From Protaetiibacter mangrovi (GTDB taxonomy: Bacteria > Actinomycetota > Actinomycetes > Actinomycetales > Microbacteriaceae), in assembly GCF_024752305.1 (NCBI RefSeq), contig NZ_JANTHX010000008.1:320825-384824 (forward strand): a DNA stretch of 64,000 bases, read 5' to 3'. Below the pieces are notes generated by a model. The model ran no database searches. It saw only the letters and a list, made by a program, of their open reading frames with translations, and was not told where the DNA came from. Shown one piece after another: positions 1,737-19,596 of the stretch; the first letter of the stretch is position 1; each line of letters begins with the position of its first letter. A program made the position numbers and the translations under genes.

Positions 1737-2131
1737 CCGCGCCCGGTCCCTGCCCCTGCGGTTCCGGCCGCGACCACGCGGCGTGCTGCGGCCCGATCCA
1801 CGCGGGGCGGCCCGCTCCGACCGCCGAGGCGCTCATGCGCTCGCGCTTCAGCGCCTTCGCGCTCGGCGACGCCGCGTACCTGCTGCGCTCGTGGCATCCG
1901 TCGACCCGGCCCGCGGTGCTCGACCTCGACGACGTCGTCGTGTGGCGCAGGCTGCAGATCGTCGACACGGATGCGGGAGGGCCGGACGACGCGGAGGGCG
2001 TCGTGGAGTTCCGCGCCTCGTACCGCGGACCGGAGGGCGCCGGCCTCCTCCACGAGCGGTCGCGCTTCGTGCGCCACGACGGGCGCTGGGTCTACCTGGA
2101 CGTCGTCACGGGGTGGGCGCCGGGCACGTGA
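1733..2131 (+). CDS. YchJ-like protein with N-terminal SEC-C motif
   Basis: A 132-aa protein of the YchJ/UPF0225 type. Residues 4-20 hold the zinc-binding SEC-C pattern (CPCGSG, then ACCGP), followed by the family region AEALMRSRFSAFALGDAAYLLRSWHP and the end block SRFVRHDGRWVYLDV. The function is not established; SEC-C motifs bind zinc and often mediate protein contacts. The GTG at 1733 overlaps the stop of the DUF2469 gene. The 3' end overlaps the convergent gene on the other strand by 26 bp. It lies between DUF2469 and yraN, where many relatives have no extra genes. Confidence 0.85.
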   Translation: MTAPGPCPCGSGRDHAACCGPIHAGRPAPTAEALMRSRFSAFALGDAAYLLRSWHPSTRPAVLDLDDVVVWRRLQIVDTDAGGPDDAEGVVEFRASYRGPEGAGLLHERSRFVRHDGRWVYLDVVTGWAPGT

Positions 2132-3200
2132 TCCCCGGCGGGTAGACGCCGTAGCCGCGACCCTCCGGGTCGAGCGTCATCCCGAGGTAGTTCTTGTAGA
2201 AGGCGACGTGCGCCGAGAAGCCGGTGTGCACGTGCATCATGTCGGTCGGGTCGTCGTATTCGGCGTAGGTGCCGACGAGCGCCGCACGCACCGGCTTGCC
2301 GCTGCCGGTCGCGAAGAGCGCGCCGAAGCTCGCCGCGTTGATGGAGCAGAACGCCCACTTCAGGTAGGTGAACTTCAGCGTGATCGTGGAGCGCGACGGG
2401 AACGGGCCGAGCTTCGCGACGAGCCAGCCCTCCAGGTAGTCGACGTCCTCCTTGGTCACGGCGTCGAGGGTGAGCACCTTGTCGTCGCGAACCCCCGTCG
2501 ACGCGTAGCCCTTCGCGTGCTCCATCGCCCACATCGAGTGGTGGTGCACGGGCGGGAACGAGCACCCCCACGCCCAGGTGTAGCCGTCGGAGGCGAACGC
2601 GGCCCGGAACAGCGCGACGGCCGCGGCGTCCTGGGTGGGCGCCTGGAAGTCGTACGCCATCCGCGAGTCCTTGTCGTTCGGGTTGCGCTGGGTGGGGCCG
2701 AGCTTCACCTTCACGGTCATCGGCCCCGCGCCCGTGGAGGGCACGGGCAGCTCGGGCTCCCGGTCGTCCCAGGTGTTGACGAGGATGACGCCGCCGGCCC
2801 AGCCGTGGCCGAAGAAGCTGAGCTCCCGCAGCGTGCCCGGGTCGTTCGCTCCGATGTCGCGCACGGCCGCGTAGACGTCGAGGATCGACATCACCTTCCA
2901 CGAGCCGGGCTTGAGCGTCGTGTGGGTGAGGCCGGCCGCATCCGTGAAGGTCGTGTAGCTCGCCTTCGTCACGGGGTCGAAGGTCGCCACGGCCGTCGCC
3001 GTCTCGGTCTTCTTGCCGCCCGGATAGCTCACGTCGACCCGCGTGACCTTGCCGCCGCGCACATCCATCATGAGGAACCGCAGCGGCTCCTTGGCTCGGT
3101 TCAGGGTGGTGAGGTGCTTGCGCCGGTTGTCGGCGATCAGCTGGAAGTCGACGCCCTTGAACTCCCAGTCGACACCGGCGACGAGGATGTGGGTGCGCAT
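2106..3200 (-). CDS. Unknown 364-aa protein with a His/Cys pattern like clan CD peptidases
   Basis: I do not recognise this family. What is visible: the start MRTHILVAGVDWEFKG, a hydrophobic strand ending in FFGHGW (His132), then about 80 residues later a second strand ending in AWGC (Cys213). Hydrophobic strand plus His-Gly, then hydrophobic strand plus Gly/Ala-Cys, is the arrangement of clan CD (caspase-like) cysteine peptidases, but this is an inference from motif spacing only. There is no signal peptide or membrane segment, so it is probably cytoplasmic or carried by another secretion route. It starts 19 bp after the stop of the 927-aa gene, so the two form one operon. It overlaps the convergent ychJ-like gene by 26 bp. 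Confidence 0.7.
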   Translation of the reverse strand: MRTHILVAGVDWEFKGVDFQLIADNRRKHLTTLNRAKEPLRFLMMDVRGGKVTRVDVSYPGGKKTETATAVATFDPVTKASYTTFTDAAGLTHTTLKPGSWKVMSILDVYAAVRDIGANDPGTLRELSFFGHGWAGGVILVNTWDDREPELPVPSTGAGPMTVKVKLGPTQRNPNDKDSRMAYDFQAPTQDAAAVALFRAAFASDGYTWAWGCSFPPVHHHSMWAMEHAKGYASTGVRDDKVLTLDAVTKEDVDYLEGWLVAKLGPFPSRSTITLKFTYLKWAFCSINAASFGALFATGSGKPVRAALVGTYAEYDDPTDMMHVHTGFSAHVAFYKNYLGMTLDPEGRGYGVYPPGITCPAPTP

Positions 3201-3219
3201 CGACGACTCCGGGTTCCGG

Positions 3220-6003
3220 TCACTCGTCCGGTTGCCAGTCCTCGCCGACCTTCTTCCACGCCGGCAGGGCGTCGTCGGCGCGGAGCTTGGCGAGGGTGGT
3301 GGGGAGCCGCACGAGCCAGGGGTCGCCGACCGGCACCTCGTCGCCGGGGGCACCCGTCGCCTCCTGGATCTCCTTGACGATCGGCACGTACAGCGAGCTC
3401 GAGATGTCGGGGGCGGGCCCGCCATTCCAGATCTTGCCGGTCTCGAGGTAGTGGATGACGGCCGCCTCGAAGCCGGGCCGCACCGGGAAGACGACGCGTC
3501 CCGCCCCGGCGCGCAGGAAGTCGGCGAACAGCGGATCGACGTCGTCGAGCAGCAGCCGCCGGTTCCAGGCGGGCTTCCAGCCCCAGAAGTACGGGTAGAA
3601 GAAGTAGATCAGGTGCTCCCACTCGAAGGCCTGCTCGAAGAAGCGCACGTAGGGCATCTGCGCGGCGGTGCGTGCCAGGTTCGGCTGCGGATGGCCCTGC
3701 GCCGAGACCTCGAGGGCGCCGAAGGCGTCGAACTGCTGCGCGGTCAGCAGCGTGATGCACTGCTTGCGCAGCTCCGCGGCCACGATGCGGGCGTTCCACC
3801 CGGGGTTGCGCCCGGAGATCACGACACCGGCCGCCGCCTCCGCCTCGGCGACCTTCGACTCGTACTGCTGCTGCTTCGCGAGGTAGCCCTGGGTGAGCGC
3901 GGCGTGCGTCTTGAGACGCCAGGTGAGCATCGCCCGCTCGGTGCGCTCGCAGAAGATCTCGATCGTGGCCGCGAAGTCGCGCAGCTTCCAGCCGAAGGTC
4001 GAGATCGAGACCGAGCCGACCTCGCCCGCCATGTCGACGTAGGTCGATGCGGTGAAGACGTCGAGCGAGTTGTTGCCGATGATGAGGTACCAGACGGCGC
4101 CGTCGTACACGTACCAGGCGGCGGTCCACAGCGCGTACTTGGCGCGGTAGCCGTCGTCGATCACGATGTCGGCCGAGCTGCTCGACTCGTACGGATCCTG
4201 GGGCATCGTGCCGCCGAGCGCCTTGCTGACGGTCTTGACCGGCGCCGGCGGCGCCTCGATGCCCGTCACGTCGTAGCGCTGCGCCCAGAGCGCGTAGTTC
4301 GACTCGGTCACGTCGGTGGGCTTCAGCGTGAAGGGGACCGGGGGCGTGAAGGTCTCGCCGTCGAGCTTGCCCTTCGTCTCGGCGACCATGAACGCCGTCG
4401 CGGGCTCCGGCACGGTGACGTCGAAGAGCATCCGCTTGCCGTAGTTGTAGACCTGGGCCTCGAGCACCTTGTCGACCCACTGGTAGACGCCGGAGATGTT
4501 GCCGGCGCCGGTCGTGTTGTCGAAGCCGTGCGAGTACTTCTCCTCGAACTCGCTGATGGTCGTGGTGCTGCGGCGCTCGAGCACGCGCTCCACCACCTTG
4601 CTGACCGAGCGCGAGACGACGTCCTTGCTGAACTCGGACGCCTGCCGCGTCGACTCCTCGCTCGAGTGGCTCGTGGCGATGCTCGCGTCGGCCTTCACCT
4701 CGACGAAGGGCCCGTACTTGGCGTCCACCGCGATGCCGGCCTTGAACTGGGTGTCGTCCTTGATGGTCGCGTCGGTCTCCCGCTTGAGCGAGAAGCGGTC
4801 GGTCGACTGGGTGTCGCGCTCCTCCTCCTTGGTGGTCTCCGATTCGGTGAGGATCGTGGTCTCGGTGCGGTCGAGGCGCCGCGTCTCGCGACTCATGTGC
4901 TCGGACTTCAGCACGTTCTCGACGTGCGCGAGCTCGCCGCCCTCGTAGCGCAGCACGTGCTCCTTGACGAGCAGCAGGTCGCCCACGCCGACCGGGCGGA
5001 TCTCGCCGTGGCCGGTCGGCATCGCCGCCCCCGGCCGGCCGACGAGGTCGGTCGCGGCGGGCTCGGGCACCAGGAGGCTGCCGAGCCGGGTGAGCGAGAT
5101 GGTCGACTCGAGCGGCTGCGCGATGCTGCTCGAGAGCTGCACCCGCGTCTCGCTGAGGGTGTTCATGATGGTCGGCAACGGCACGGAGGTCGCGTCGATG
5201 CCGAGTCCGCGCAGGGTGGAGGTGACCTTGGCGGGAAGCTTCTGCACCGTCGCCGGCGCCAGCATCCACGGGTTGCTGGCCACGGCCGACTCGGCGACCG
5301 CGGCGTCCGCGTCGTCCGCGGCTGCGCGGGGTGCCGCGGCGCGCGCACGGCTCGTGCCGCGCGGGGTGTTCGCCCGATCGACGACGAAGCCGCCCGCGGG
5401 CACCTTGCCGAGCGCGGAGAGGGCGGCGTCGATGCGCTGGATCTGGGCCGCGATCCGGGGGTCCGGCTCCTTCGGCTCCTCGGGTGCGGGCGGCTCCTCG
5501 TGGTCGTCGTCGGGCTTCGCCGGCGGATCGAGCGGCACCACGAGCGGGCGCAGCCGCACCTCGGCGGCGCCTTCGGCGATGCGGCGGATCGCGTCGAACC
5601 CCTGCGCCGCGAGGGCGAGTCCGCGGGCGTCGACCTCGGCGGAGCCCGACAGCACCTTGACGGCGACGAGGGTGTCGTCGATGCGGGCGACGGCGGGGTC
5701 GAACGCCGGGTCGGCGACGAGCTGCTGCGCCGTGCGCTGGGTGCGCTCCTCGACGAGCGCGGCGGCCGCATCCGCGTCGAGCACCGAGGTGCCGATGGCG
5801 GCGGCGACGTCGCGTGCGAGGCCGCCGAGCGGCACCTGCTCGATCGTGTGCACGGCGTCCTTCGCGGCGAGCACCGCGGCCGCCTGGCGTCGCGCCTTCG
5901 GCCCGTCCGCGGGGTCCACCTTGTCGGAGGTGAGCACGCGGATGTCGCCCGACACCGGGAGGTCGGCGGGTCGCATCATGAGGAAGCGGAAGAGGTCGTC
6001 CAT
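3220..6003 (-). CDS. Unknown 927-aa protein, operon with putative peptidase-like protein
   Basis: A large protein of no family I can name. Regions seen: an alpha-helical N-terminus (1-155), a Pro/Glu/Asp linker (about 159-182), a Ser/Thr-rich middle, a charged helical stretch near 370-470 rich in Glu, Arg and Thr (TESETTKEEERD), a block NISGVYQWVDKVLEAQVYNYGKR near 500-525 (quoted as the segments NISGVYQWVDK and VYNYGKR), and an aromatic C-terminal domain with FFYPYFWGWKP near 800. There is no signal peptide or membrane segment. Size, helix content and lack of export signal suggest a structural or scaffold protein. It is the first gene of a two-gene operon, divergent from tetR across a promoter region containing a run of 16 G. 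Confidence 0.75.
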   Translation of the reverse strand: MDDLFRFLMMRPADLPVSGDIRVLTSDKVDPADGPKARRQAAAVLAAKDAVHTIEQVPLGGLARDVAAAIGTSVLDADAAAALVEERTQRTAQQLVADPAFDPAVARIDDTLVAVKVLSGSAEVDARGLALAAQGFDAIRRIAEGAAEVRLRPLVVPLDPPAKPDDDHEEPPAPEEPKEPDPRIAAQIQRIDAALSALGKVPAGGFVVDRANTPRGTSRARAAAPRAAADDADAAVAESAVASNPWMLAPATVQKLPAKVTSTLRGLGIDATSVPLPTIMNTLSETRVQLSSSIAQPLESTISLTRLGSLLVPEPAATDLVGRPGAAMPTGHGEIRPVGVGDLLLVKEHVLRYEGGELAHVENVLKSEHMSRETRRLDRTETTILTESETTKEEERDTQSTDRFSLKRETDATIKDDTQFKAGIAVDAKYGPFVEVKADASIATSHSSEESTRQASEFSKDVVSRSVSKVVERVLERRSTTTISEFEEKYSHGFDNTTGAGNISGVYQWVDKVLEAQVYNYGKRMLFDVTVPEPATAFMVAETKGKLDGETFTPPVPFTLKPTDVTESNYALWAQRYDVTGIEAPPAPVKTVSKALGGTMPQDPYESSSSADIVIDDGYRAKYALWTAAWYVYDGAVWYLIIGNNSLDVFTASTYVDMAGEVGSVSISTFGWKLRDFAATIEIFCERTERAMLTWRLKTHAALTQGYLAKQQQYESKVAEAEAAAGVVISGRNPGWNARIVAAELRKQCITLLTAQQFDAFGALEVSAQGHPQPNLARTAAQMPYVRFFEQAFEWEHLIYFFYPYFWGWKPAWNRRLLLDDVDPLFADFLRAGAGRVVFPVRPGFEAAVIHYLETGKIWNGGPAPDISSSLYVPIVKEIQEATGAPGDEVPVGDPWLVRLPTTLAKLRADDALPAWKKVGEDWQPDE

Positions 6004-6079
6004 CGCGGGCTCCTGTCTGATCCACCGCAGTCGCGGTCTGCGGATGAGGAGGGGCGAGCCGGCTCCCTGATACCGGGGC

Positions 6080-6095
6080 GGGGGGGGGGGGGGGG
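6080..6095. repeat. Homopolymer run of 16 G
   Basis: Sixteen consecutive G residues on the plus strand between the divergent starts at 6003 (minus) and 6133 (plus). Such a tract is prone to slipped-strand mispairing and, lying 77 bp upstream of the 927-aa gene, could change promoter or leader length. The exact length may also be a sequencing estimate. Confidence 0.9.
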
Positions 6096-6106: not shown

Positions 6107-6127
6107 AAATGTTAGTGACTAACATTT
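6107..6127. promoter_or_regulatory. TetR-type operator, perfect 10-bp inverted repeat
   Basis: AAATGTTAGT and ACTAACATTT form a perfect 10-bp inverted repeat around a single central G. It ends five bases before the GTG of the tetR gene. The TTAGT-N-ACTAA core is the usual form for TetR regulators that control a neighbouring ABC exporter, so autorepression of the 6133-8188 operon is likely. It may also affect the divergent operon. Confidence 0.85.
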
Positions 6128-9784: not shown

Positions 9785-10707
9785 TGGGGGTGGGTCGCGC
9801 GCACGCGGTCGCGCTGCTCGGGCTCGACGGCGCACCGGTCGAGATCGAGGCCGACACCGCGAGCGGTCTTCCGGCCTTCGTGCTCGTGGGGCTTCCGGAT
9901 GCCGCCCTCGGCGAGGCGAAGGCGCGGGTGCGCTCGGCGATCGGCAACAGCGGCTTCTCGTTCCCCGGCGGCCGCGTCACGGTCAACCTCTCGCCGGCGT
10001 CGCTGCCGAAGACCGGTTCCGCCTTCGACCTCGGCATCGCCCTCGCCGTGCTGGCCGCCGAGGGGTGGGTCGCGCCGGAGTCCGTGGCCGGGGTCGTGCA
10101 TCTCGGGGAGCTGGGTCTCGACGGGCGGCTCCGACCCTCCCGCGGCATCCTGCCGATGGTGCTGGCGGCCGAACGGGCCGGATTCGACACGGTGCTCGTG
10201 CCGGTCGGCAACGCCGACGAGGCGGCGCTCGTGCCGGGCATGCGGGTGGTGCCGGTCGCGAGCCTGCGCGCCGCGGCGATCTGGCACGGCGCCGAGCTCG
10301 AACCGGTCGAGGTGGAGCCCCTGCTGCCGGTGCAGGGGGCGGCGGTGCCCGACGACGCCGGCGACCTCGCCGAGGTGATCGGCAACCGCGACGCCGTCGA
10401 GGCGGTGCAGGTCGCCGCTGCGGGCGGGCATCACATGTTCCTGCTGGGGCCGCCCGGCGCCGGCAAGACGATGATCGCCACGCGGCTGCCCGGCATCCTG
10501 CCCGACCTCGACGAGCGCGCCGCCATCGAGGTCAGCTCGATCCGCTCGCTCGCCGGCGTCCCGGTCGGGCGCTCGCTCGCCACCCGGCCGCCGCTCGAGG
10601 CGCCCCACCACTCGGCGTCGCCCGCGGCGATCGTCGGCGGGGGCAGCGGGGTCATCCGGCCGGGCGCGGCGGCCCGTGCCGCCCACGGCATCCTGTTCCT
10701 CGACGAG
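9784..10707 (+). pseudogene. comM: comM 5' fragment, interrupted by integrated element
   Basis: The N-terminal 308 codons of ComM (YifB, Mg-chelatase-like AAA+ helicase that extends branch migration during natural transformation). Visible: the start [49 protein letters not shown] and Walker A LLGPPGAGKTMIATRLPG. The fragment ends exactly at the Walker B sequence ILFLDE, where the mobile element enters. The 3' part resumes at 19631; joined without the element the protein would be about 509 aa, the normal ComM length. There is no stop codon after the junction: the frame runs on through the integrase to 12261. Confidence 0.93.
10701..10707. other. attL core of the integrated element
   Basis: CGACGAG, shared with 19630-19636. 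The left flank continues into comM and the right flank is element sequence. In the rejoined comM this heptamer encodes the Walker B Asp-Glu. The likely crossover dinucleotide is GA at 10705-10706. Confidence 0.8.
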
Positions 10708-10740
10708 TCGAGGGACACCAGAACGCGCCATAATCGGCGG

Positions 10741-12261
10741 ATGGAGAAGAGAGCCGTCCTGTACTGCCGAGTATCGCGCAGCACCGACGAGTCGGTCAGC
10801 ACCAGCAGGCAGGAGCGCGAGCTCCGGGAGCTGGCCGCGGCGGAGGGCTGGCCCGTGGTGGCCGTCTACACCGACGAGGGCGTGACGGGCACCAGGGACC
10901 GCGAGAACGCCGACGCGGCGCTGGACGCGGTGGCCCGCGGCGACGCCGACGCGCTGCTGGTCTGGGAGATGAGCCGGTGGAGCCGCATGGGGCTGGGCGC
11001 CGTGGCGCGGCTCGTCGGCGTGCTCCGCGACCGCCCTGGCTCGCTGTTCGTGGCCAAGAAGGAGGGACTGCGGAGCGACCAGCCCGCCTTCGGCATCATG
11101 GCGGCCGTCGTGGCCGAGGTCGCGGCGATGGAGGCCGAGGGCACCCGCGACCGCATCCTCTCGATGCGGCGGCACGTGCTGTCGGCCACCGACCCCGCGG
11201 AGATGCGCTGGCTCGGCGGCGCGGTGCCGTTCGGCTACCGCCCGGCGGGGCGCCCCGGCGGCGGCAAGACGCTCGTGCCCGACGACTCCGAGGCCCAGTA
11301 CGCCCGCGAGGGGGCGCGGCGGCTGGCCGCCGGGGCCCGCATCACGGACGTGACCCGCTGGCTCGACGCCGAGGGCGTCGCCACGCCGCAGAGCGCGGCC
11401 CGAAGGGCCAGGCAGGCCGGCGAGGCGCACGAGGGGCTGGACCGCGGGCGATGGCGCGTCACCACGGTCCGCAAGCTGTTTCAGTCGCCGACGCTCATCG
11501 GCCGCACGACGCGGAGGGAGCGTGCCGGCACGCGCGCAGACGGCTCGCCCGTGTGGGAGTACCGCGCCGTGGCCGACGAGCACGGGATGCCGATCACGCG
11601 GTGGGAGCCGCTGCTCGACCCCGGGACGTTCGCGGCCGTGCAGGAGCGCTTCAGGACCCGCGGGCCCAACGAGGGCCGTAGGGCCGCGTCGTGGCTGTCG
11701 GGCCTGCTGTACTGCGGCCTCTGCGGGTCGGTGATGTACGCGGCGCGGCGCGACGGCGGCAGGGCCGACGCGTTCCGGTGCGCCAACAAGGCGTTCCCGA
11801 ACGCGCAGTGCCCCGGCGTCAGCATCTCGCGCCCCGCGGCAGAGGCCCACATGGAAGCCACGATCCTCCGCATGGTCGGGCACCTCGCGGAGTACCGAGT
11901 CTCCGAGACGGCGGAGGGCCCGGACCAGGGCGAGCTCGACGGCGTGGCGCAGGCGATCGCCGACGTGCAGGGCGCCCTGGCGCAGGACGGGGCCGACTAC
12001 GCGGAGCTGCTGCCGCGGCTCGACGCGCTGAAGGGGCGCCGGCGCGCGCTTCTCGACGCGCCGCGCAGGACCAGGCGCACCAGGACGCCCACGGGCCGCA
12101 CGCTCGCTGAGGCCTGGCGCGCCGACGACGCCCAGGCGCGGCGGCACCTAGTCGAGGACATGCTCGACTCGGTGACGGTCGCGAAGGCTGCGCGCGGGGC
12201 CCGCGACGCCGCGGAGCGCATGGATCCGCTGTGGATCGAGCACCCGGTGGAGGACGACTGA
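10741..12261 (+). CDS. Large serine recombinase (integrase)
   Basis: A 506-aa site-specific recombinase that integrates the element. Residues 4-150 form the resolvase catalytic domain with AVLYCRVSRS (nucleophile Ser12), followed by a recombinase DNA-binding domain (VPFGYRP near 165, TTVRKLFQSPTLIGR near 245) and a zinc-ribbon domain with a coiled coil near 320-360 (CGLCGSVMYA, then FRCAN and CPG). A CATAAT -10-like box at 10729-10734 lies six bases before the ATG, so it may be expressed leaderless from the attL end. The frame is also open upstream into the comM 5' half, so a ComM-integrase fusion from translation out of yraN-comM is possible. Confidence 0.93.
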   Translation: MEKRAVLYCRVSRSTDESVSTSRQERELRELAAAEGWPVVAVYTDEGVTGTRDRENADAALDAVARGDADALLVWEMSRWSRMGLGAVARLVGVLRDRPGSLFVAKKEGLRSDQPAFGIMAAVVAEVAAMEAEGTRDRILSMRRHVLSATDPAEMRWLGGAVPFGYRPAGRPGGGKTLVPDDSEAQYAREGARRLAAGARITDVTRWLDAEGVATPQSAARRARQAGEAHEGLDRGRWRVTTVRKLFQSPTLIGRTTRRERAGTRADGSPVWEYRAVADEHGMPITRWEPLLDPGTFAAVQERFRTRGPNEGRRAASWLSGLLYCGLCGSVMYAARRDGGRADAFRCANKAFPNAQCPGVSISRPAAEAHMEATILRMVGHLAEYRVSETAEGPDQGELDGVAQAIADVQGALAQDGADYAELLPRLDALKGRRRALLDAPRRTRRTRTPTGRTLAEAWRADDAQARRHLVEDMLDSVTVAKAARGARDAAERMDPLWIEHPVEDD

Positions 12262-12271
12262 AGCTGAAAGT

Positions 12272-12334
12272 CCGCTGAACGCGCGCGCCACGCGACGGCG
12301 CGGCCGTACGCTACCTGGACGCCCGCTGAACGCG
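12272..12334. repeat. Two direct repeats CCGCTGAACGCG around a possible promoter
   Basis: CCGCTGAACGCG occurs at 12272-12283 and 12323-12334. A TACGCT -10-like box (12306-12311) lies between the copies, and the second copy sits in a small hairpin (GCCCGC/GCGGGC). This is the stretch just upstream of the 125-aa gene, so the repeats may bind a regulator of that gene. Confidence 0.6.
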
Positions 12335-12354
12335 GGCTGAGCAAAGGGAGCGGC

Positions 12355-12732
12355 GTGGGCATGCGGATCAGGACAGAGGCGGTGCCTCGCGAGGCGAGGC
12401 GCAGGCTCGCGGCGGAGGGCAAGGACAGGCGCCGAGAGGCCGACGGCTCGTGGACCCTGGTGGTCCCGGCGGCGGGGCCCCAGGTGGACAACGCCCCACG
12501 GCGGGTCGTCGGGCTCAACGAGCTGGGGGAGCCCCAGTGGTGGCCGTCGCACCGGGACTGGGCGGACGCCAGCGCGGAGCCCGAGCCCGAGGACAGGCTG
12601 GCGGCACCACGCGACGGCGCTGGCCTCGCGGCGAGGGTGGCCAGGGGCGCGGCGGCCAGGAGGGCGCGGGACGACGCACGGAGGGCGGCGGCGATCGAGC
12701 GCGACTGGCAGCGCAGGGCCGCGGAGCGCTGA
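12355..12732 (+). CDS. Hypothetical element protein, 125 aa
   Basis: I do not recognise this protein. It is basic and rich in Arg, Ala and Glu, with a central block VVGLNELGEPQWWPSHRDW and a long charged helix at the C-terminus (about 85-125). A ribosome binding site AAAGGGAG lies six bases before the GTG at 12355; an ATG at 12361 is the alternative. Position directly after the integrase gene is where small directionality factors are often found, but nothing in the sequence proves that role. Confidence 0.6.
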   Translation: MGMRIRTEAVPREARRRLAAEGKDRRREADGSWTLVVPAAGPQVDNAPRRVVGLNELGEPQWWPSHRDWADASAEPEPEDRLAAPRDGAGLAARVARGAAARRARDDARRAAAIERDWQRRAAER

Positions 12733-12805
12733 GACGCCAGCAACCCTCCCGGCGGCGCGCGGCAGGTTCAGACGCAACGAGCCACACCACCAAACGGAGG
12801 ACGAG

Positions 12806-13057
12806 ATGCAGAACAAGAACCTGGACGCGGCGATCAAGGCCGTCAGCGCCGAGCAGGGCGCCGAGGTCGCGAGCGAGGACGTGACCGACTACCTGGCCCG
12901 CGTCGACGAGCTCATCGCGGCGGCGCAGGCGCTGAAGGCGCCGCACCGCAAGGCGATCGCGGCCGAGGCGTCGCGGAAGTCGCGCGCCAAGAAGGCCGCC
13001 GAGGTCGAGGCCATGAGGGCGCGCCTCGCGGAGCTGGAGGCGTCCGCCGCGAAGTGA
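12806..13057 (+). CDS. Small helical element protein, 83 aa
   Basis: An 83-aa protein of unknown function, predicted almost wholly helical, with a Lys/Ala/Glu-rich C-terminal coiled coil (KSRAKKAAEVEAMRARLAELE). A strong ribosome binding site (CGGAGGA) precedes the ATG. It is followed within 20 bp by a hairpin terminator. By size and charge it could be a DNA-binding or regulatory protein. Confidence 0.6.
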   Translation: MQNKNLDAAIKAVSAEQGAEVASEDVTDYLARVDELIAAAQALKAPHRKAIAAEASRKSRAKKAAEVEAMRARLAELEASAAK

Positions 13058-13071
13058 CGGCCAGCGGCGAG

Positions 13072-13107
13072 AGGCCCCCGAGCCCCGGCGACCGGGACCG
13101 GGGGCCT
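13072..13107 (+). terminator. Hairpin terminator after the 83-aa gene
   Basis: A perfect 9-bp stem, AGGCCCCCG (13072-13080) with CGGGGGCCT (13099-13107), followed by TTCGTCTT. It ends the integrase-side operon before the methyltransferase promoter. Confidence 0.65.
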
Positions 13108-13299
13108 TCGTCTTGCCCTCGGAGCCGCCGGTGACGATCTGGGACGCTTTCGCCAGCCCGGAGGCCGGAAGCAAGGGCGGCGGGCCCCGAGGCCCCAGAA
13201 CGCGACACGCCGAGGCGCGAAGCCCGGTAGCCGCCTGGGACTGGTAACTCCCGGCGCGCCGGCGCCGCGGTTGTCCGACCCGCCGGCTACAGTGGCAAC

Positions 13300-13980
13300 A
13301 TGTCCCAGCGCCCCCGCCTCCTTGACCTGTTCTGCTGCGCCGGAGGCGCCGGGATGGGGTACCACCGCGCCGGCTTCGAGGTCGTCGGAGTCGACATCGA
13401 CCCGCAGCCGAACTACCCGTTCAAGTTCATCCAGCACGACGCGCTGACGCTCGACGCGGAGTTCCTGGCGTCGTTCGACGCGGTGCACGCGTCGCCGCCC
13501 TGCCAGTCGTACTCCGACCTGGCGAAGCGGAACGGGAACGCACACATGTGGCCGCGGCTGATCGAGCCGGTGCGCGAGATGCTGGAAGGCCTCGGCGTCC
13601 CGTACATCATCGAGAACGTCGAGGGCGCGCCGCTGCTGGACCCGGTGGTGTTGTGCGGGACGATGTTCCCCGGACTCCGCGTGATCCGCCACCGCCTGTT
13701 CGAGTCGAACATCGACCTGACGGCGCCGGAGCACGGGAAGCACCCGCTGGTCTTCACGCACGACAAGCGCAAGGCGCACTACGGGAAGCTCGACCAGAAC
13801 ACGTCGTTCGTGCAGGTGACGGGCGGCGGCAACTGCTCGATCGCCAACGCCAAGGATGCGCTCGGCATCGACTGGATGAACAAGCACGAGCTGAACGAGT
13901 CGATCCCGCCGGCGTACACGGAGTACCTCGGCGCGTCGCTCATGCGCGCCGTCATGCAAGGGGAGCAGCGCGCCGCCTAA
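13300..13980 (+). CDS. C5 cytosine DNA methyltransferase
   Basis: A 226-aa enzyme that methylates carbon 5 of cytosine in DNA. Motif I is LLDLFCCAGGAGMGYHRAGF at the N-terminus, motif IV is ASPPCQSYSDL with the catalytic Cys68, and motif VI is IIENVEGA with Glu105. It is short for the family and has little room for a target recognition domain, as in other phage-encoded versions. TACAGT at 13288-13293 ends six bases before the ATG, so it has its own leaderless promoter. An HNH nuclease gene starts ten bases downstream; together they may be a restriction-modification pair. Confidence 0.9.
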   Translation: MSQRPRLLDLFCCAGGAGMGYHRAGFEVVGVDIDPQPNYPFKFIQHDALTLDAEFLASFDAVHASPPCQSYSDLAKRNGNAHMWPRLIEPVREMLEGLGVPYIIENVEGAPLLDPVVLCGTMFPGLRVIRHRLFESNIDLTAPEHGKHPLVFTHDKRKAHYGKLDQNTSFVQVTGGGNCSIANAKDALGIDWMNKHELNESIPPAYTEYLGASLMRAVMQGEQRAA

Positions 13981-13990
13981 GATCTGCTGC

Positions 13991-14566
13991 GTGGCGGCTG
14001 ACAGCGCGAAGGCGAAGATCCGGGCGCACTTCCGCGCGCACCAGGGCGAGGTCGTCAAGGGCAAGGAGCTGGCGGCGCTGGTCCAGCCCGTGGGGGAGTG
14101 GGCGCGCCGCGTGCGCGAGCTCCGCGACGAAGAGGGCTGGCCGATCCAGACCCAGAACGACCGGCAGGACCTGAAGCCCGGCGAGTACATGCTTGTGGGG
14201 GAGCCGCCGGAGAAGTCGAACGAGGCGTTCAAGCGCGGCATCTCGCAGAAGCTGCGGGCCGAGGTCCTCGACCGCGACGGCTTCACGTGCCAGATGTGCG
14301 GCAAGGCCGCGGGCGAGCTCGACCCCGACACCAGTAGGCCAGTGCGGCTGCACATCGGTCACATCGTGGACAAGGTGTACGGCGGCAAGGACGAGCTCGC
14401 GAACCTCCGGACTCTGTGCTCGACGTGCAATCAGGGTGCGAAGAACATCACGACGGAGAAGCCGTCCACGATCTGGCTACTTGCGCAGGTGCGGCGCGCC
14501 GGGAACGGCGAGCAGCAGGCCGTCTACGAGTGGCTGGCCAGCAAGTACGGCCCGAAGGCCGACTAG
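13991..14566 (+). CDS. HNH endonuclease paired with the methyltransferase
   Basis: A 191-aa nuclease. Residues 1-75 look like a winged-helix domain (ELAALVQPVGEWARRVRELR, then LKPGEYMLVG); residues about 90-155 form an HNH domain with zinc-binding cysteines (FTCQMCGKA, then LCSTCNQGAKN) and the active-site block LHIGHIVDKVYGGKDELANL. The wing-plus-HNH arrangement occurs in some type II restriction enzymes. The GTG start lies ten bases after the methyltransferase stop, so they are co-transcribed. The stop overlaps the convergent stop at 14563. A general phage HNH enzyme is the alternative. Confidence 0.85.
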   Translation: MAADSAKAKIRAHFRAHQGEVVKGKELAALVQPVGEWARRVRELRDEEGWPIQTQNDRQDLKPGEYMLVGEPPEKSNEAFKRGISQKLRAEVLDRDGFTCQMCGKAAGELDPDTSRPVRLHIGHIVDKVYGGKDELANLRTLCSTCNQGAKNITTEKPSTIWLLAQVRRAGNGEQQAVYEWLASKYGPKAD

Positions 14567-15114
14567 GCAGACTCCGCTGACCGCCGCGCGCGGTCGAACG
14601 CGTCGAGGACGCGCCGGGCGGCGTCGCGAGCGCTCGGGACCGGCGTGCAGTCGATGAACGCGGCGACGTCGGCCAGGGCGGAGCGGTCCGACAGCGCGCG
14701 GCCCGCGAGGGAGCCGACGTACGCGAACTCCGAGTCCTCGAGCGTCACGGGCAGGTACATCGTGGACAGGGACCGCGGGGGCGGCATCGTCGCGGGGTCG
14801 TAGAAGTGGGCCCCGGCGATGGCGCGGTCGAGCAGGGCCACGACCTCGGCGTCGCCGGCGGCCTCTGCCTCGGCGCGGTACCGGCGCCAGATGCGCAGGA
14901 AGCTGGCCAGGTGGCGCGGCGACGGCAGAGGGTGCCGCTCCTGGCGGACGACCATGGCCTCGACCTGACCCCGCGCGAATCGGCGGACGGAGGGGTGCGT
15001 CGTCGTGATGAGGATCGGGAGCACGCGGTGCAGCGCCCGGTACGGGTGCTTGCCGAGGAACAGGGCCGCGGACTCGCGGGCGCTGTCCGCGTCGGCCAGC
15101 TCGTCTGGGGTCAC
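14563..15114 (-). CDS. Hypothetical element protein, 183 aa
   Basis: A 183-aa mostly helical protein of unknown function. It has ESAALFLGKHPYRALHRVLP near the start and FLRIWRRYRAEAEAAGDAEVVALLD in the middle. No signal peptide, zinc site or membrane segment is seen. Its GTG start overlaps the stop of the 113-aa gene by four bases (GTGA), so the two are coupled. It is the last gene of the leftward operon and is convergent with the HNH nuclease gene. Confidence 0.65.
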   Translation of the reverse strand: MTPDELADADSARESAALFLGKHPYRALHRVLPILITTTHPSVRRFARGQVEAMVVRQERHPLPSPRHLASFLRIWRRYRAEAEAAGDAEVVALLDRAIAGAHFYDPATMPPPRSLSTMYLPVTLEDSEFAYVGSLAGRALSDRSALADVAAFIDCTPVPSARDAARRVLDAFDRARRSAESA

Positions 15115-15452
15115 GCGGCGGCCGCGTCCGCGGGGTCGGGCGCGCCGAGCCAGCGGTCGTGCGCGCGGGTCAGTTCGCGGGCGACCTCGTCCAGGTCCTC
15201 GCACGCGGAGACGAGCGCGGCCTCCGCGCTGCCCCAGGCGTTGCGGAGCTGCTGGCGGCGCCGGTCCGCGACGATCGCCGGGGTCGGGTCCGAGACGGTG
15301 CCCTTGCCGCGCTCCGTGGTGTCCTCGCGGGGCCTGGGCGCCTGGCCCATGCGGTAGGTGTCGCCCTCCGTTTCCGCCAGCAGGGCGACGAGGGAGAGGT
15401 AGGTCGCGACGATCGCCTTGAGGCGAGCGCGCTGTTCTGCGTGGGTGGTCAA
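15111..15452 (-). CDS. Hypothetical element protein, 113 aa
   Basis: A 113-aa helical protein of unknown function, with ARLKAIVATYLSLVALLAETEGD at the N-terminus and a second helix RRQQLRNAWGSAEAALVSACEDLDEVARELTRAHDRW (quoted in part as AWGSAEAALVSACEDL). The start is a TTG at 15452, chosen because an AGAGGA ribosome binding site lies seven to eight bases upstream. It is coupled to the 183-aa gene by a four-base overlap. Confidence 0.6.
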   Translation of the reverse strand: MTTHAEQRARLKAIVATYLSLVALLAETEGDTYRMGQAPRPREDTTERGKGTVSDPTPAIVADRRRQQLRNAWGSAEAALVSACEDLDEVARELTRAHDRWLGAPDPADAAAA

Positions 15453-15513
15453 GACGGGGTCCTCTCGTGGATGGCGTGGAAGTGGGGGAGCCTGGCGGGC
15501 ACTGCGAAGCGAG

Positions 15514-15759
15514 TCATGCGCGAGCCGCCCTGGCAGCCGCGATGCACCCGTAGCACCGGGTGTCGAGGCCGTCGCGCTCGCGGGTGCGGTCCGGGAAGGC
15601 GTGGAAGGGCAGGGAGCGGCGGCACCTGGCGCAGGTCTTCAGGCCGCCGGGGCGCAGGCGGCGGCGGTCGCGCTCGACCTGCCAGGGCTCGCGCGCAACG
15701 TTGCGGGCGCGTCGGCGGCGCTGGCGCTCGCCGTCTGACTCGGGGGTGCGGCGGTCCAT
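15514..15759 (-). CDS. Small zinc-knuckle protein, 81 aa
   Basis: An 81-aa basic protein. The N-terminal half is rich in Arg, and the C-terminal half has two Cys-x2-Cys pairs (CARCRRSLPFHAF, then CYGC) spaced like a zinc ribbon. It resembles the 76-aa protein at 15866 in the same operon. The start ATG at 15759 follows a GAGGGGT ribosome binding site. Proteins with this pattern are common in actinobacterial phages; the function is unknown. Confidence 0.6.
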   Translation of the reverse strand: MDRRTPESDGERQRRRRARNVAREPWQVERDRRRLRPGGLKTCARCRRSLPFHAFPDRTRERDGLDTRCYGCIAAARAARA

Positions 15760-15806
15760 GGGACCCCTCTCTCGTGCAGTTGAGGCGGCGTCGGGCCGCG
15801 AAAAGG

Positions 15807-15842
15807 CGCCCGCGACGGGGGAGCTATGGCCCGTCGCGGGCG
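15807..15842 (-). terminator. Rho-independent terminator on the minus strand
   Basis: A perfect 13-bp stem: CGCCCGCGACGGG (15807-15819) pairs with CCCGTCGCGGGCG (15830-15842) around a 10-base loop. On the minus strand it is followed by CCTTTTCGC. It sits between the 76-aa and 81-aa genes and should reduce or end transcription coming from the capsid side. Confidence 0.8.
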
Positions 15843-15865
15843 TCAAGATCGATCGTGCCGCGGGA

Positions 15866-16096
15866 TCAGGCCGCGGCAGCGGTCCCCGGGATGCTCCGGG
15901 CTTCGGCCGCGCGGTGGCGGCGGACGGCCTCGCGGGCGAGCTCGCGGCCGCGCTCCGTGGCGCGCCACTGGCGCTGCCGCTCCGCCTTGCACCCCTTGCA
16001 GAATCCCTCGCGGCCTGTCGCGGACTTGGCGTGGCGGGCGAAGAGGTCCGCAGGCTTGGTGGCGCCGCACCGGGCGCAGGTCAGCTGGTCGTTCAT
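15866..16096 (-). CDS. Small zinc-knuckle protein, 76 aa
   Basis: A 76-aa basic protein with CARCGATKPADLFAR and FCKGCKAERQRQW, two Cys-x2-Cys pairs forming a probable zinc knuckle, followed by a basic helix. It is similar in plan to the 81-aa protein at 15514, so the two may be paralogues. The ATG at 16096 has a GGGAG ribosome binding site. The role is unknown; nucleic-acid binding is plausible. Confidence 0.65.
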   Translation of the reverse strand: MNDQLTCARCGATKPADLFARHAKSATGREGFCKGCKAERQRQWRATERGRELAREAVRRHRAAEARSIPGTAAAA

Positions 16097-16112
16097 CGTC
16101 AGTCTCCCGAGG

Positions 16113-16271
16113 TCAGGACAGGTTGTGGCGCGCCTCGCCGAGGTCGCGCAGGGCCTGGCCAGCGTCCGCCGCGGAGGCCGGGTCCTCGGCGCGGGACAGC
16201 AGCGACTGAAGGGCCAGCTCCACACGATTGAGGGCGGTCTGGGCGGCGACAATCTGAGAGGGCGTGGGCAC
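16113..16271 (-). CDS. Small helical protein, 52 aa
   Basis: A 52-aa protein made of two helices (IVAAQTALNRVELALQSLLS and GQALRDLGEARHNLS). The GTG at 16271 is favoured over longer starts because AGGAGG lies seven bases upstream. It is sixteen bases from the start of the 76-aa gene, in the same operon. The function is unknown. Confidence 0.55.
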   Translation of the reverse strand: MPTPSQIVAAQTALNRVELALQSLLSRAEDPASAADAGQALRDLGEARHNLS

Positions 16272-16457
16272 GGGGCCTCCTGTGGCTAGAACGGACGTAC
16301 CGGTGTCGGCGGCAGTGGGTGGGCGCCCCACCAGGGGATACGCGATGGGGTGGCCCCTCAGGGGGGATACGTGAAGTTGCCGGGCGAGCTGCCTGGCCGC
16401 CGCCGTCCGCAGGTTTCGGGCGCCCCTAGCCCGCGGGGCGAGGTCGCGGAGACCGGC

Positions 16458-16772
16458 TCACCACCGCTCGCTGAGCAGGCCGAGCGCGGGAGGTCCGTCG
16501 CCGCGGTCGCCGCGCTTCTGGTTGCAGAGCAGGTGCGACGAGCGCAGGTTGCCCGGGTCCTCGCGCAGCTCGGGCGACCGCGAGTGCGGCACGACGTGGT
16601 CCACGCTGAAGGAGCCGGGGTCGGGCCACTGCAGGTCGTAGTCGATCGGCTGACCGCAGAGCCAGCAGGGCAGGCGCATGTCGCGCTGCCGCCGCTTGAG
16701 CCGCGTCCAGACCGAGCCGGTGCGGCCCGCGTTGGGGCGGCCCGGCACCCCGGGGGGCGTCGCGCGCGGCAT
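16458..16772 (-). CDS. HNH endonuclease, 104 aa
   Basis: A small HNH nuclease of the type found next to packaging genes of HK97-like phages. It has the zinc site LPCWLCGQPI, the active-site block SFSVDHVVPHSRSPEL and LLCNQKRGDR with the final conserved residues. In phages such proteins help the terminase cut DNA during packaging; no terminase is present here, so it may work with a helper phage's enzyme. The ATG at 16772 has a GGGAGG ribosome binding site; a longer reading frame begins at 16805. Confidence 0.85.
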   Translation of the reverse strand: MPRATPPGVPGRPNAGRTGSVWTRLKRRQRDMRLPCWLCGQPIDYDLQWPDPGSFSVDHVVPHSRSPELREDPGNLRSSHLLCNQKRGDRGDGPPALGLLSERW

Positions 16773-16862
16773 GGTGCCTCCCGGCGCAGGGGCCCCGGGG
16801 GGCATGAAGTAGGACCCGCGCCGGGGAGCTCAGCGACGATTCACCGGCGCGGGGGTCTGTGG

Positions 16863-16895
16863 GGCGGCGCGACCCGGGTCAGGGGCCGCGCCGCC
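16863..16895 (-). terminator. Possible hairpin terminator after the capsid gene
   Basis: GGCGGCGCG (16863-16871) pairs with CGCGCCGCC (16887-16895) just past the capsid stop. No T-run follows on the minus strand, so this may instead be an mRNA 3' stabiliser. Confidence 0.35.
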
Positions 16896-16929
16896 GGGTC
16901 AGTTCGTCCCCGTGACCAGGGGGTGGCGG

Positions 16930-18039
16930 CTACGCCGCGAGGTCGATCTTGGCGATCGCCTGCGACGCGTAGACGTCGAAGTTCGCCCGCATCTCGGTGC
17001 GGAACTGGACCTCGTTGACCGTGAAGCCGGACGACTTGTCCTGCTCGGTCTGAATGCCCTGCCGGTCCACCGAGACACCGAGGCGGTCGGTCGCGAGCGC
17101 GAGCGCCGTGCCGGCGGTCACGTCGGGCGAGAGCAGCGTCGGGATGCCCCAGACGACCGGCTGCGCGGGCGAGCCGGCCAGGAACGGCCCGTCGCCGTAG
17201 TAGCGCTCCTCGGCGTCCTTCGACTTCCGCAGGGCGTGGTAGTCCGCGGGGTTCAGCACCAGCAGCGAGGGCGAGTAGCCCGCGTCGCTGACGGCGGCGA
17301 GGCCGTCGTAAATGCTGTCGGCCGGGGTGTCGGCGGCGGCGACGTTCTGGATGCCGGGCGTGGCGAGGAACGTGTCCACGCCGAGCTTGGTCGCGCGGCG
17401 GACGACGATGTCGCGGAGCTCGGTGTCCACGAACGTCTCCAGGGACGAGTTGTCGGCCAGGAGGTACTTGTCGATCGGCTCGCTCAGGGTCGCGATGACC
17501 TGCAGCTCGCCCTCGACCTCGGCGACGGTCAGGACGCTGACCGGCTTCTCCTCGCCCGCGGGCACGACGTCGGCGCCCGAGGTGCGGACGGTCTGGCGCA
17601 GGGTGGTGTACTTGCGCGAGCCGCGCTCGGTGGCCTGGATGACCGAGAGCAGGCCGAAGCCCGTCTGGCCGAGGCGGATCGGCTCGGGGTCGAGGGCGAC
17701 GGGGATGCCGTCGCTGCCGGAGGCCACGAGGGCCTTGACGCCGCGGCCCGCGACGGCCTTGGCGGTCTTCGCGAGGTTGACGTAGCCCTTGCGGCCCGTC
17801 TCGACGCCGGTGATGTTGCCGTCGAGGTCGGCCTCGACCACGCCGCCAGCCATCTCGGCGAGGCTCGCCGCGGCCTTCTCGCCGCGGTCGATGGCGGTCT
17901 TGAGCTCCATCGCGCGCTGCGACTTCCGCTCGATGGTGTCGCACTCGGCGTCGGTGAGGCTGCGGCCCTTCGACTTGACGTCGGCCACGAGGGCCTGCAG
18001 CTCGGCCTGGATGGCCTTCAGTTCGGACTTGGGGTCCAT
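16930..18039 (-). CDS. HK97-fold phage major capsid protein
   Basis: A 369-aa major capsid protein. Residues 1-65 form a charged coiled coil (ELKAIQAELQALVADVK, then ERKSQRAMELKTAIDR), which corresponds to the delta/scaffold domain that is clipped off in HK97. The shell domain follows, with DTELRDIVVRRATKLGVDTFL, PSLLVLNPADYHALRK, PVVWGIPTLLS and the end NFDVYASQAIAKIDL, all typical of this fold. The usual partners (protease, portal, terminase) are absent. A ribosome binding site (GGGAG) precedes the ATG. In a satellite this protein could build small capsids that exclude a helper's genome. Confidence 0.93.
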   Translation of the reverse strand: MDPKSELKAIQAELQALVADVKSKGRSLTDAECDTIERKSQRAMELKTAIDRGEKAAASLAEMAGGVVEADLDGNITGVETGRKGYVNLAKTAKAVAGRGVKALVASGSDGIPVALDPEPIRLGQTGFGLLSVIQATERGSRKYTTLRQTVRTSGADVVPAGEEKPVSVLTVAEVEGELQVIATLSEPIDKYLLADNSSLETFVDTELRDIVVRRATKLGVDTFLATPGIQNVAAADTPADSIYDGLAAVSDAGYSPSLLVLNPADYHALRKSKDAEERYYGDGPFLAGSPAQPVVWGIPTLLSPDVTAGTALALATDRLGVSVDRQGIQTEQDKSSGFTVNEVQFRTEMRANFDVYASQAIAKIDLAA

Positions 18040-18354
18040 GGTGTTCTCCCGTGAGTAGGAAGCGATTCGCGCCGCGTGGGCGCGCTGGATCGCCTACCTC
18101 GCGGACCGTGGACGCGGGCTGCGCCGGCCGTCGCGCTCCTGCGCCTCGGGCCTTGCGGTCGTCGCCTGCGTTCGGCTGGCTGGCTCGACGCGCTCCTGCG
18201 CGCCGATCGGCTGTGCCGGCCTCGGGAGGGCCGGTGGTCTGTGGGGGCGCGGTTTCCTCGCCCACCTACTAAGTGACTCGTGGAGGCGGGCCGAGGCGGA
18301 CCCGGGGAGCAGCGGCGCCCGCAATCCCGTGGAACCCCGGGCTACGGTTGGCGC
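18040..18354. other. Non-coding stretch upstream of the capsid gene
   Basis: About 315 bp with no credible gene. In phages the protease and portal would lie here. It holds the ribosome binding site of the capsid gene, a relatively AT-rich patch at 18266-18276 (CTACTAAGTGA), and on the plus strand a TACGGT -10 box (18342-18347) for the small zinc-ribbon gene. Confidence 0.5.
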
Positions 18355-18480
18355 GTGGACGAGGACCGGGACGACGGGCTCGGGGCGCCGAACTGCCCGC
18401 GTTGCCTCACGCCGATGGAGGCCGCGGGGGACGCGGCGCCGCGGTGGGAGTGCGGGTCCTGCGGGCTGGTCAGGCTGTAG
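18355..18480 (+). CDS. Small zinc-ribbon protein, 41 aa
   Basis: A 41-aa product starting at GTG: acidic N-terminus (VDEDRDDG), then NCPRCLTPMEAAG and WECGSCGLVRL, i.e. two Cys-x2-Cys pairs forming a zinc ribbon. TACGGT at 18342-18347 ends seven bases before the GTG, matching the leaderless pattern of this genome. It is encoded opposite to the capsid operon, and its stop overlaps the convergent HNH-like gene by 11 bp. The zinc pattern is why I call it real despite its size. Confidence 0.55.
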   Translation: MDEDRDDGLGAPNCPRCLTPMEAAGDAAPRWECGSCGLVRL

Positions 18481-19177
18481 CGGCGCCGAGCAGCTCGGCC
18501 ACGCGCTCGGGGGAGAGGCCGTTCGCCGGGCCCCAGTCGCGGAGGTCGCGGGCGCCCTTGGAGCGCTGGTGCGCGGTGCAGATCGGCGCGAGGTTCGCCG
18601 GAGCAGAGTCGCGGGACGCGGCCCACGGGACCAGGTGGTCCACGGTGCTCGCGGTGCCGCCGCAGACGTAGCAAGACCAGGAGAACGCGGGCCCCCAGCG
18701 CGACTCGCAGCGCGAGCGCAGGACCGCGGGGACGCGCGTGGACCGCGCGTAGCCGTCGCCTAGGTAGGGGTCGGAGCCGCGGTCGGCGGGCCAGGCCGCG
18801 AAGGGGTCGGGGCGCACGCCGTCGAGCTCGGGCAGGCGGCGTGCGACACGGCGCATCCCGCGGTAGGAGCGCTCGGCGGCGCGGCAGTCGTCGCAACGGC
18901 AGCCCGCGGCGTAGTGGCGGCGGGTGCCGTGCGGCTCTTCGGCGGGGTCGGCCAGCTCCGGCGTCGCCGGCAGGATGCCGCGGAAGCCGCGGACGCCACG
19001 CCGCTTGCCCTCGGCGGCCCCGGCGGCGCGGAGGGCGTCGAGGACCTGGCGCGACGAGGGCCGCGGGCGACCGGCCCAGTCGGACCAGGCCCACGCGGCG
19101 CGGAGCGCGTCGGCGCGCGAGGTCCAGGCGCCGGGGCCGGCGCTGAGGTCGAAGACCTCGGGAAGGTGGCTGAGCAT
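18470..19177 (-). CDS. HNH-like protein, 235 aa, first gene of the capsid operon
   Basis: A 235-aa protein in two parts. The middle has a Cys cluster HYAAGCRCDDCRAAERSYRGM seen in actinophage proteins. The C-terminal part looks like an HNH nuclease: SWSCYVCGG, TVDHLVPWAASRDSAPANL and PICTAHQRSK. The ATG at 19177 is favoured by a nearby CGGAG; a TTG at 19219 would add 14 residues. A TACAGT -10 box (19264-19259, minus) lies about 80 bases upstream. It is the promoter-proximal gene of the leftward operon that leads to the capsid. Confidence 0.75.
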   Translation of the reverse strand: MLSHLPEVFDLSAGPGAWTSRADALRAAWAWSDWAGRPRPSSRQVLDALRAAGAAEGKRRGVRGFRGILPATPELADPAEEPHGTRRHYAAGCRCDDCRAAERSYRGMRRVARRLPELDGVRPDPFAAWPADRGSDPYLGDGYARSTRVPAVLRSRCESRWGPAFSWSCYVCGGTASTVDHLVPWAASRDSAPANLAPICTAHQRSKGARDLRDWGPANGLSPERVAELLGAATA

Positions 19178-19320
19178 CGGGGCTCCGAGAGGACGGGCGG
19201 ACGGGCGGAAGTTCTGCAACGTGTCTGTGCCTGGGAGCCGCGCCGGAGCGCCACACGCACTGTACGCCGAGCCCGCGACGCCGCAGCAGGGCGCGCGGCA
19301 CGGCGTCAGCGTACCGCCGA

Positions 19321-19422
19321 GGGGGCACTTTGTGACGCAGGGGGCACTTTGTGGTTGGCGGCCTTCGGGGGCGAAACTGGCTCCTGACCTAGGGTTTCTC
19401 CGGTGGGGGGCACTTTGTGGTT
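19321..19422. repeat. Three direct repeats GGGGGCACTTTGTG
   Basis: Copies start at 19321, 19340 and 19406; the last two extend identically to GGGGGCACTTTGTGGTT. Each has a small dyad CAC-TTT-GTG. Spacing is 19 and 66 bp, too irregular for a CRISPR array. They lie upstream of the capsid-operon promoter and probably bind a regulator or a replication protein. Confidence 0.8.
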
Positions 19423-19567
19423 ATGCATATGCGAAGTAGACGCAATCGAGGCCGAAACTGCCCTAACTGCCCTGAGCGAGGGCGGCGGGCGGCTCCGCGT
19501 CCCCGGCGAACTGTTGCGATCCGGGCTCGTTCGGTGGTTCGGTGCGGAGGGAGGGGCCTGTCGGAAG

Positions 19568-19596
19568 TCGCCCTAACCGCCCTAACCGCCCTGAAG
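19568..19596. repeat. Iteron-like CGCCCTAAC repeats
   Basis: CGCCCTAAC occurs twice in tandem followed by CGCCCTGAA. A related pair (TGCCCTAAC, TGCCCTGAG) lies about 110 bp to the left. The cluster ends 34 bp before the attR core. Confidence 0.6.

What the first reader, a model, noticed from the sequence alone, without database searches (positions are those of the whole stretch)
2106..6003. Unrecognised two-gene operon: large helical protein plus peptidase-like protein
A 927-aa protein with helical, Ser/Thr-rich and aromatic domains is co-transcribed with a 364-aa protein with His132 (FFGHG) and Cys213 (AWGC) placed like the dyad of clan CD peptidases. Neither matches a family I can name, neither has an export signal, and they sit where many relatives have no genes between DUF2469 and yraN. 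A scaffold or sensor with a caspase-like partner would fit a defence or programmed-death system, or a secreted effector pair.
Basis: inference. Interest (0 to 1): 0.65.

Follow-up and report, generated by a model that had tools for sequence, protein, structure and literature searches.

The report
Mobile predicted-protease and large-protein gene pair
An actinobacterium carries a rare, horizontally acquired two-gene cassette that encodes a predicted caspase-clan protein-cutting enzyme and a large uncharacterised partner protein whose relatives, in bacteria, archaea and phages, are paired with other enzymes such as phospholipases, which suggests an undescribed kill-or-defend module.

Summary
The two genes are real (927 aa at 3220-6003 and 364 aa at 2106-3200, minus strand, 19 nt apart). 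They were acquired as one block: all eight other species of the genus lack the small gene, and one shows the empty site. Neither protein matches Pfam, NCBIfam, PHROGs, PADLOC or a PDB sequence. The 364-aa family has seven known members. All lie next to a relative of the 927-aa protein, and His132 and Cys213 are the only invariant His and Cys. A low-confidence AlphaFold model still returns clan CD peptidases of family C11 as its top seven structural matches, so the clan CD guess is supported. It is not C11 proper: C11's conserved Asp two residues before the Cys is an invariant Trp here. The 927-aa protein belongs to a wide, unnamed family in bacteria, haloarchaea and phage contigs. Elsewhere its neighbour is a patatin phospholipase or an unknown protein. 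One relative pair sits inside a DISARM defence locus. I favour a conflict module (defence or programmed death) in which the large protein is constant and the small enzyme exchangeable. The fold call is moderately firm; the function is inference. A phage-derived or secreted toxin pair remains a live rival.

The parts
2106..3200 (-). 364-aa predicted clan CD (C11-like) cysteine peptidase; putative dyad His132/Cys213
   Evidence: alignment of 7 homologues; Foldseek/VIA top hits are C11 clostripains
2805..2807 (-). codon of His132 (SFFGHG), only invariant His of the family
   Evidence: coordinates computed from the ORF start at 3200
2562..2564 (-). codon of Cys213 (AWGC), only invariant Cys of the family
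   Evidence: coordinates computed from the ORF start at 3200
3201..3219 (-). 19-nt spacer with GGAG ribosome-binding site for the 364-aa gene
3220..6003 (-). 927-aa member of an unnamed large-protein family; conserved part is residues about 330-925
3859..4311 (-). central beta-sandwich domain, about residues 565-715 (the only confidently modelled part, pLDDT 54-87)
   Evidence: structural matches span model residues 287-389
4648..4770 (-). amphipathic Ser/Thr/Ala/Gly-rich beta-hairpin (residues 412-452) between two long predicted helices; possible membrane-inserting element
2106..6075 (.). acquired cassette (approximate right end): absent from the matching site in G058, where window 2102 and 6096 are about 40 bases apart
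6080..6095 (.). run of 16 G, 77 bp upstream of the 927-aa start; the only homopolymer of 9 or more in the window

Best explanation
A horizontally acquired two-gene conflict module. The small gene encodes a cysteine peptidase of the caspase-like clan CD fold (C11-like strand order, dyad His132/Cys213). The large gene encodes the constant partner: a multidomain protein with a helix-hairpin-helix segment, a beta-sandwich and a conserved aromatic C-terminal domain. In other lineages the same family is paired with other enzymes, such as patatin phospholipases. My most likely mechanism is this: on a trigger such as phage infection or damage, the large protein recruits, activates or is cut by the peptidase; the released activity, through proteolysis and possibly membrane insertion of the amphipathic hairpin, stops growth or kills the cell. 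Shown: adjacency in an operon-like arrangement, acquisition, linkage of every known small-family member to the large family, invariant dyad, exchangeable partner. Supported by a weak model: clan CD fold. Inferred: defence role, trigger, cleavage of the partner, membrane action.
For: Pairing: the small family has seven known loci (window, L002, L003, L004, L005, L033, L034); four were found by searching with the small protein alone, and all seven have the large gene next to it, with the order reversed in Ensifer and a 130-aa ORF between. Fold: Foldseek's three best hits and VIA's seven best (Z 7.5-5.6, next unrelated 5.0) are all C11 clostripains. The model's element order (b1-a1-b2-b3-b4-a2, then a strand ending at His132) matches PmC11, where extra strands follow b2 and His133 ends b5 (PMC4357240). 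A Gly beside the His is structurally conserved in clan CD (PMC4357240); Gly133 is present here. Partner exchange: patatin neighbours in Chryseobacterium-type loci and Natronorubrum; the Chryseobacterium-type patatins match PADLOC phospholipase effector profiles at about 1e-62 to 1e-61. Mobility and rarity: 1 of 9 genomes in the genus and 1 of 199 sampled in the family; an empty site; different neighbourhoods in different genera; phage contigs. Defence context: the Ensifer pair follows DrmD-DrmMI-DrmA-DrmB and precedes SIR2 and SMC-like genes; the Aulosira relative of the large protein is near type I restriction genes. Hairpin: high beta-moment in 14 of 15 members.
Against: The peptidase model has pLDDT 40 and only three similar sequences behind it. 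Profile comparison with C14, CHAT and C11 gave nothing, and the VIA output warns that Z under 8 can be a common arrangement. Most loci, including this one, lie among housekeeping genes, not defence genes. PADLOC finds neither protein. No toxin or immunity gene is evident. The large protein's function rests on no homology at all.
Confidence: 0.4

Rival explanations
1. Phage- or tail-derived effector pair: the large protein is a delivery, surface or pore protein that carries or exports a lytic enzyme (peptidase, patatin), as in tailocin or injection-system cargo or interbacterial toxins.
For: Two Bacteroidota-type phage contigs carry the family next to predicted tail sheath and tube genes, a D,D-peptidase-like gene, a patatin and a fibre-like protein (names read from sequence); a Photobacterium locus has a tail-collar protein just downstream; the variable partner looks like variable cargo; the hairpin could be pore-forming.
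Against: No tail, secretion or immunity genes beside the pair in the window, Microbacterium, Tsukamurella or Ensifer; no export signal by eye; no match in 50,697 phage records; wide spread including haloarchaea.
Confidence: 0.22
2. A self-contained regulated pore-former: the peptidase cleaves the large protein, which then inserts its hairpin in the membrane, in the manner of gasdermin systems but with an unrelated pore protein.
For: Linkage of every known small-family peptidase to the large protein; conserved amphipathic hairpin between long helices.
Against: Many relatives of the large protein have no peptidase neighbour, so cleavage cannot be general; the hairpin region was modelled at pLDDT about 40 or less; no membrane evidence.
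Confidence: 0.18
3. An ordinary physiological or stress-related protein-processing pair with no role in conflict.
For: Most loci are among housekeeping genes; in Sinorhizobium it keeps one place in two strains whose surroundings were read.
Against: Very patchy presence, mobile carriers, partner exchange, and a DISARM locus in Ensifer.
Confidence: 0.15
4. The 364-aa protein is not a peptidase: the conserved His/Cys and the weak C11 match are a coincidence of an alpha/beta fold.
For: Low-confidence model; no profile match.
Against: Seven of the seven best VIA hits belong to one clan CD family; the only invariant His and Cys of the family fall in the order and setting clan CD predicts.
Confidence: 0.2

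Closest known systems
Clan CD family C11 (clostripain, PmC11)
   Same: Predicted strand and helix order, a strand ending at His (132 here, 133 in PmC11), Cys later in the chain, Gly after the His
   Different: No Pfam C11 match; the C11 S1 Asp at Cys-2 (Asp177 in PmC11) is an invariant Trp211; 81 residues between His and Cys instead of 46; no export signal seen by eye
CHAT and C14 caspase-like peptidases in bacterial defence (for example TPR-CHAT Csx29, gasdermin operons)
   Same: Caspase-clan peptidase beside a larger partner; sometimes in defence loci
   Different: No sequence or profile similarity found; the partner family is different and unnamed
Defence systems with exchangeable effectors (CBASS, Avs)
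   Same: A constant component with alternative effector enzymes, including patatin phospholipases
   Different: No cyclase or NTPase module is part of the pair; the constant protein has no known signalling domain

Membership tests
Clan CD peptidases | Catalytic His then Cys at the ends of adjacent strands | tested here: inconclusive
   H132 and C213 are invariant in 7 homologues; the strand before H132 is modelled, the one before C213 is not; model pLDDT 40
Clan CD peptidases | alpha/beta/alpha caspase-like sandwich | tested here: inconclusive
   Top 7 VIA hits are C11, Z 7.5-5.6, aligned 105-180 residues, rmsd 3.5-6.2; low-confidence model
Clan CD peptidases | Gly next to the catalytic His | tested here: met
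   Gly133 in the window protein and 5 relatives; Ala in the Ensifer relative; criterion from PMC4357240
C11 (clostripain) | Match to Pfam PF03415 | tested here: not met
   No hit for the members scanned; no PF03415 match in this genome
C11 (clostripain) | Conserved S1 Asp two residues before the catalytic Cys | tested here: not met
   Trp211 is invariant in all 7; C11 has Asp177 before Cys179 (PMC4850288)
C14 caspase / CHAT | Family profile match | tested here: inconclusive
   No Pfam hit; profile-profile P-values 0.2-0.8, but the small-family profile is shallow (Neff 2.1); the C14 against CHAT control gave 91-93% probability
Known anti-phage systems | Match to PADLOC-DB models | tested here: not met
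   No meaningful hit for either protein (best Csx3 at 0.044)
Anti-phage systems (as a class) | Repeated location in defence islands | tested here: inconclusive
   Ensifer pair in DISARM and Aulosira near type I RM; other loci not
Anti-phage systems (as a class) | Protects against phage | not testable with these tools
   needs experiment
Bacterial gasdermin systems | Gasdermin pore protein cut by a partner protease | tested here: inconclusive
   No Pfam or PADLOC match for the large protein; whether those libraries hold a gasdermin model was not checked; cleavage not testable

The most novel reading that the evidence does not exclude
The 927-aa family is an undescribed, cross-domain (bacteria, archaea, phages) core component of a conflict system that works with exchangeable effector enzymes: a new clan CD peptidase family in some lineages and patatin lipases in others.
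Probability: 0.3. Interest if true: 0.78.

Novelty: new variant of a known kind. Interest (0 to 1): 0.55.

Why it matters
If right, it adds a new clan CD peptidase family with a predicted dyad and an unusual S1 position (Trp-Gly-Cys), and it gives a name-worthy identity to a large, widely spread protein family that no searched library covers. The exchange of a peptidase for a phospholipase beside one constant protein would make a general question testable: whether bacterial death and defence systems are assembled from one core and swappable killers. One point mutation (C213A) and one deletion would settle most of it.

Tried and rejected
Profile searches in Pfam, NCBIfam, PHROGs and PADLOC, and PDB sequence searches with single sequences and alignments: nothing. 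hhalign of the small family against C14, CHAT and C11 alignments: nothing, but the profile is too shallow to count as a refutation (the C11 sequence was cut wrongly and was redone). Structure of the large protein: only the central beta-sandwich was confident, and its matches (FlhE, Kex2/furin P-domain, viral capsid jelly-rolls, lambda gpJ, GOLD domains) are generic, so I draw no function from them. Searches of phage records with both proteins and with a Chryseobacterium relative: none. Tree of the large family: cannot tell whether the Ensifer pair is an old pairing or a partner exchange. Pfam scans of alternative neighbours (746, 713, 712, 799, 549, 344, 482, 469, 362, 387 aa): no domain above cut-off; a weak Ntox4 hit at 0.015 was not pursued. 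Paper searches found no description of the pair.

Full report
WHAT IS THERE. The minus strand holds a 927-aa gene (3220-6003) followed after 19 nt by a 364-aa gene (2106-3200), each with a good ribosome-binding site. Both have relatives in other genera under purifying selection (simple dN/dS about 0.33 and 0.37 against Microbacterium L002). The pair overlaps the 3' end of a YchJ-like gene by 26 bases and is divergent from a TetR gene at 6133.

ACQUISITION. The window lies in genome G000. None of the eight other genomes of the genus and none of 198 other sampled genomes of the family has the 364-aa gene. DNA comparison shows most genus members colinear up to about window 2105. In G058 the sequence then resumes at window 6096 after about 40 bases, so the cassette 2106 to about 6075 is missing as one block. 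Several other relatives resume at about 8195, so the site is a variable spot. The two Microbacterium relatives (70% identity) sit in different surroundings. I saw no integrase or obvious repeat at the junctions; they were read by eye only.

THE SMALL PROTEIN. Searches found seven members: window, two Microbacterium (L002, L003), Tsukamurella (L004), G869 (L033), G812 (L034) and Ensifer adhaerens (L005, 27% identity). All seven lie beside a member of the large family. In Ensifer the order is reversed, with a 130-aa ORF between. The order change with kept adjacency argues for a functional link. Across the seven, H132 is the only invariant His and C213 the only invariant Cys. Yet an unbiased search of the PDB put C11 clostripains in the first three Foldseek places (E 1.3e-3 to 2e-2) and in the first seven VIA places (Z 7.5 to 5.6, with the next unrelated chain at 5.0). 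The order of elements agrees with the PmC11 description: two extra strands after b2, then a helix, then a strand ending at the catalytic His (PMC4357240, PMC4850288). Invariant T311-Y312 after a predicted strand-like segment would suit the conserved aromatic of the S1 loop named there (inference). C11 proper is excluded as a label: no PF03415 match, and the S1 Asp at Cys-2 is an invariant Trp. The Trp-Gly-Cys motif suggests a P1 preference other than Arg/Lys (inference).

THE LARGE PROTEIN. Its residues 330-925 define a family with no entry in the libraries searched. Members were read in Actinomycetota, Sinorhizobium, Ensifer, Cupriavidus, Photobacterium, Chryseobacterium, the cyanobacterium Aulosira, the haloarchaeon Natronorubrum, and three viral-collection contigs. 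Most keep a short N-terminal motif (LFxFxxxRPP). The profile matched 8 of 394 genomes sampled in the class, two of them only in part. The one confident structural part is a beta-sandwich at about residues 565-715. Ahead of it lies a Ser/Thr/Ala/Gly-rich amphipathic hairpin between two long helices; its beta-moment is in the top tenth of the protein in 14 of 15 members. Such hairpins occur in pore-formers, but also elsewhere. The same segment occurs in otherwise different large proteins (L038, L039), so it is a mobile module.

PARTNERS. Outside the seven small-family loci the neighbour changes: patatin phospholipases in Chryseobacterium-type loci (matching PADLOC phospholipase effector profiles at about 1e-61) and in Natronorubrum, and various unknown proteins of 344-799 aa elsewhere. 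In Ensifer the pair lies directly after DrmD-DrmMI-DrmA-DrmB and before SIR2-like and SMC/LmuB-like genes, which is a DISARM island. In Aulosira the large gene is near type I restriction genes. Elsewhere the surroundings are ordinary.

READING. Constant large protein, exchangeable hydrolase, rarity, mobility, phage carriage and one clear defence-island locus fit a conflict module best. Shown: adjacency, acquisition, linkage, dyad conservation, partner exchange. Supported with a weak model: clan CD fold. Inferred: defence or death, activation by or cleavage of the large protein, membrane action. The main rival is a phage-derived or secreted effector pair, because the Bacteroidota-type contigs have the genes beside tail genes and lytic enzymes.

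LIMITS. The plasmid collection dominated the sampling of non-actinobacteria, so their plasmid location is partly a search effect. Only three similar sequences could be used for the peptidase model. The large gene is broken by a shift of frame in L003, L034 and one Sinorhizobium record (L015); I cannot say whether these are sequencing errors or decay.

Noticed in passing
window 6080-6095: A run of 16 G, the only homopolymer of 9 or more bases in the 64 kb, lies in the acquired DNA 77 bp upstream of the 927-aa gene; it could be a phase-variation tract or an assembly artefact.
   Followed up: partly
window about 10710-19630: Most genus relatives join 10710 directly to 19630 with about 10 bases of overlap; the 9 kb between look like a phage-derived element (cytosine methylase, HNH nuclease, capsid-like gene, read from sequence) inserted in what reads as a comM/yifB-like gene.
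   Followed up: partly
window 6107-6127: Palindrome AAATGTTAGTGACTAACATTT in front of the TetR gene, also present at the empty site in G058; it lies about 100 bp upstream of the 927-aa gene and might also affect its transcription.
   Followed up: no
upstream of the 927-aa gene in window, L002, L003, L034: A shared GTATCA element about 70 nt before the start codon, possibly a promoter part that travels with the cassette.
   Followed up: no
L003 about 8920, L034 about 10390-10440, L015 about 9600: The large gene is interrupted by frame shifts at three different places in three genomes.
   Followed up: partly
L039 (7322-10636) and L038 (7246-9789, minus): The helix-hairpin-helix segment of the large family is found in otherwise different 850-1100-aa proteins of unknown function.
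   Followed up: partly
L022, L023 (Bacteroidota-type viral contigs), L007 (Chryseobacterium plasmid): Conserved cluster of D,D-peptidase-like gene, patatin and large-family gene; on the viral contigs also a fibre-like protein, near tail sheath and tube genes.
   Followed up: partly
L005 12927-13316: A 130-aa ORF with a likely membrane helix (by eye) sits between the peptidase-like and large genes in Ensifer.
   Followed up: no
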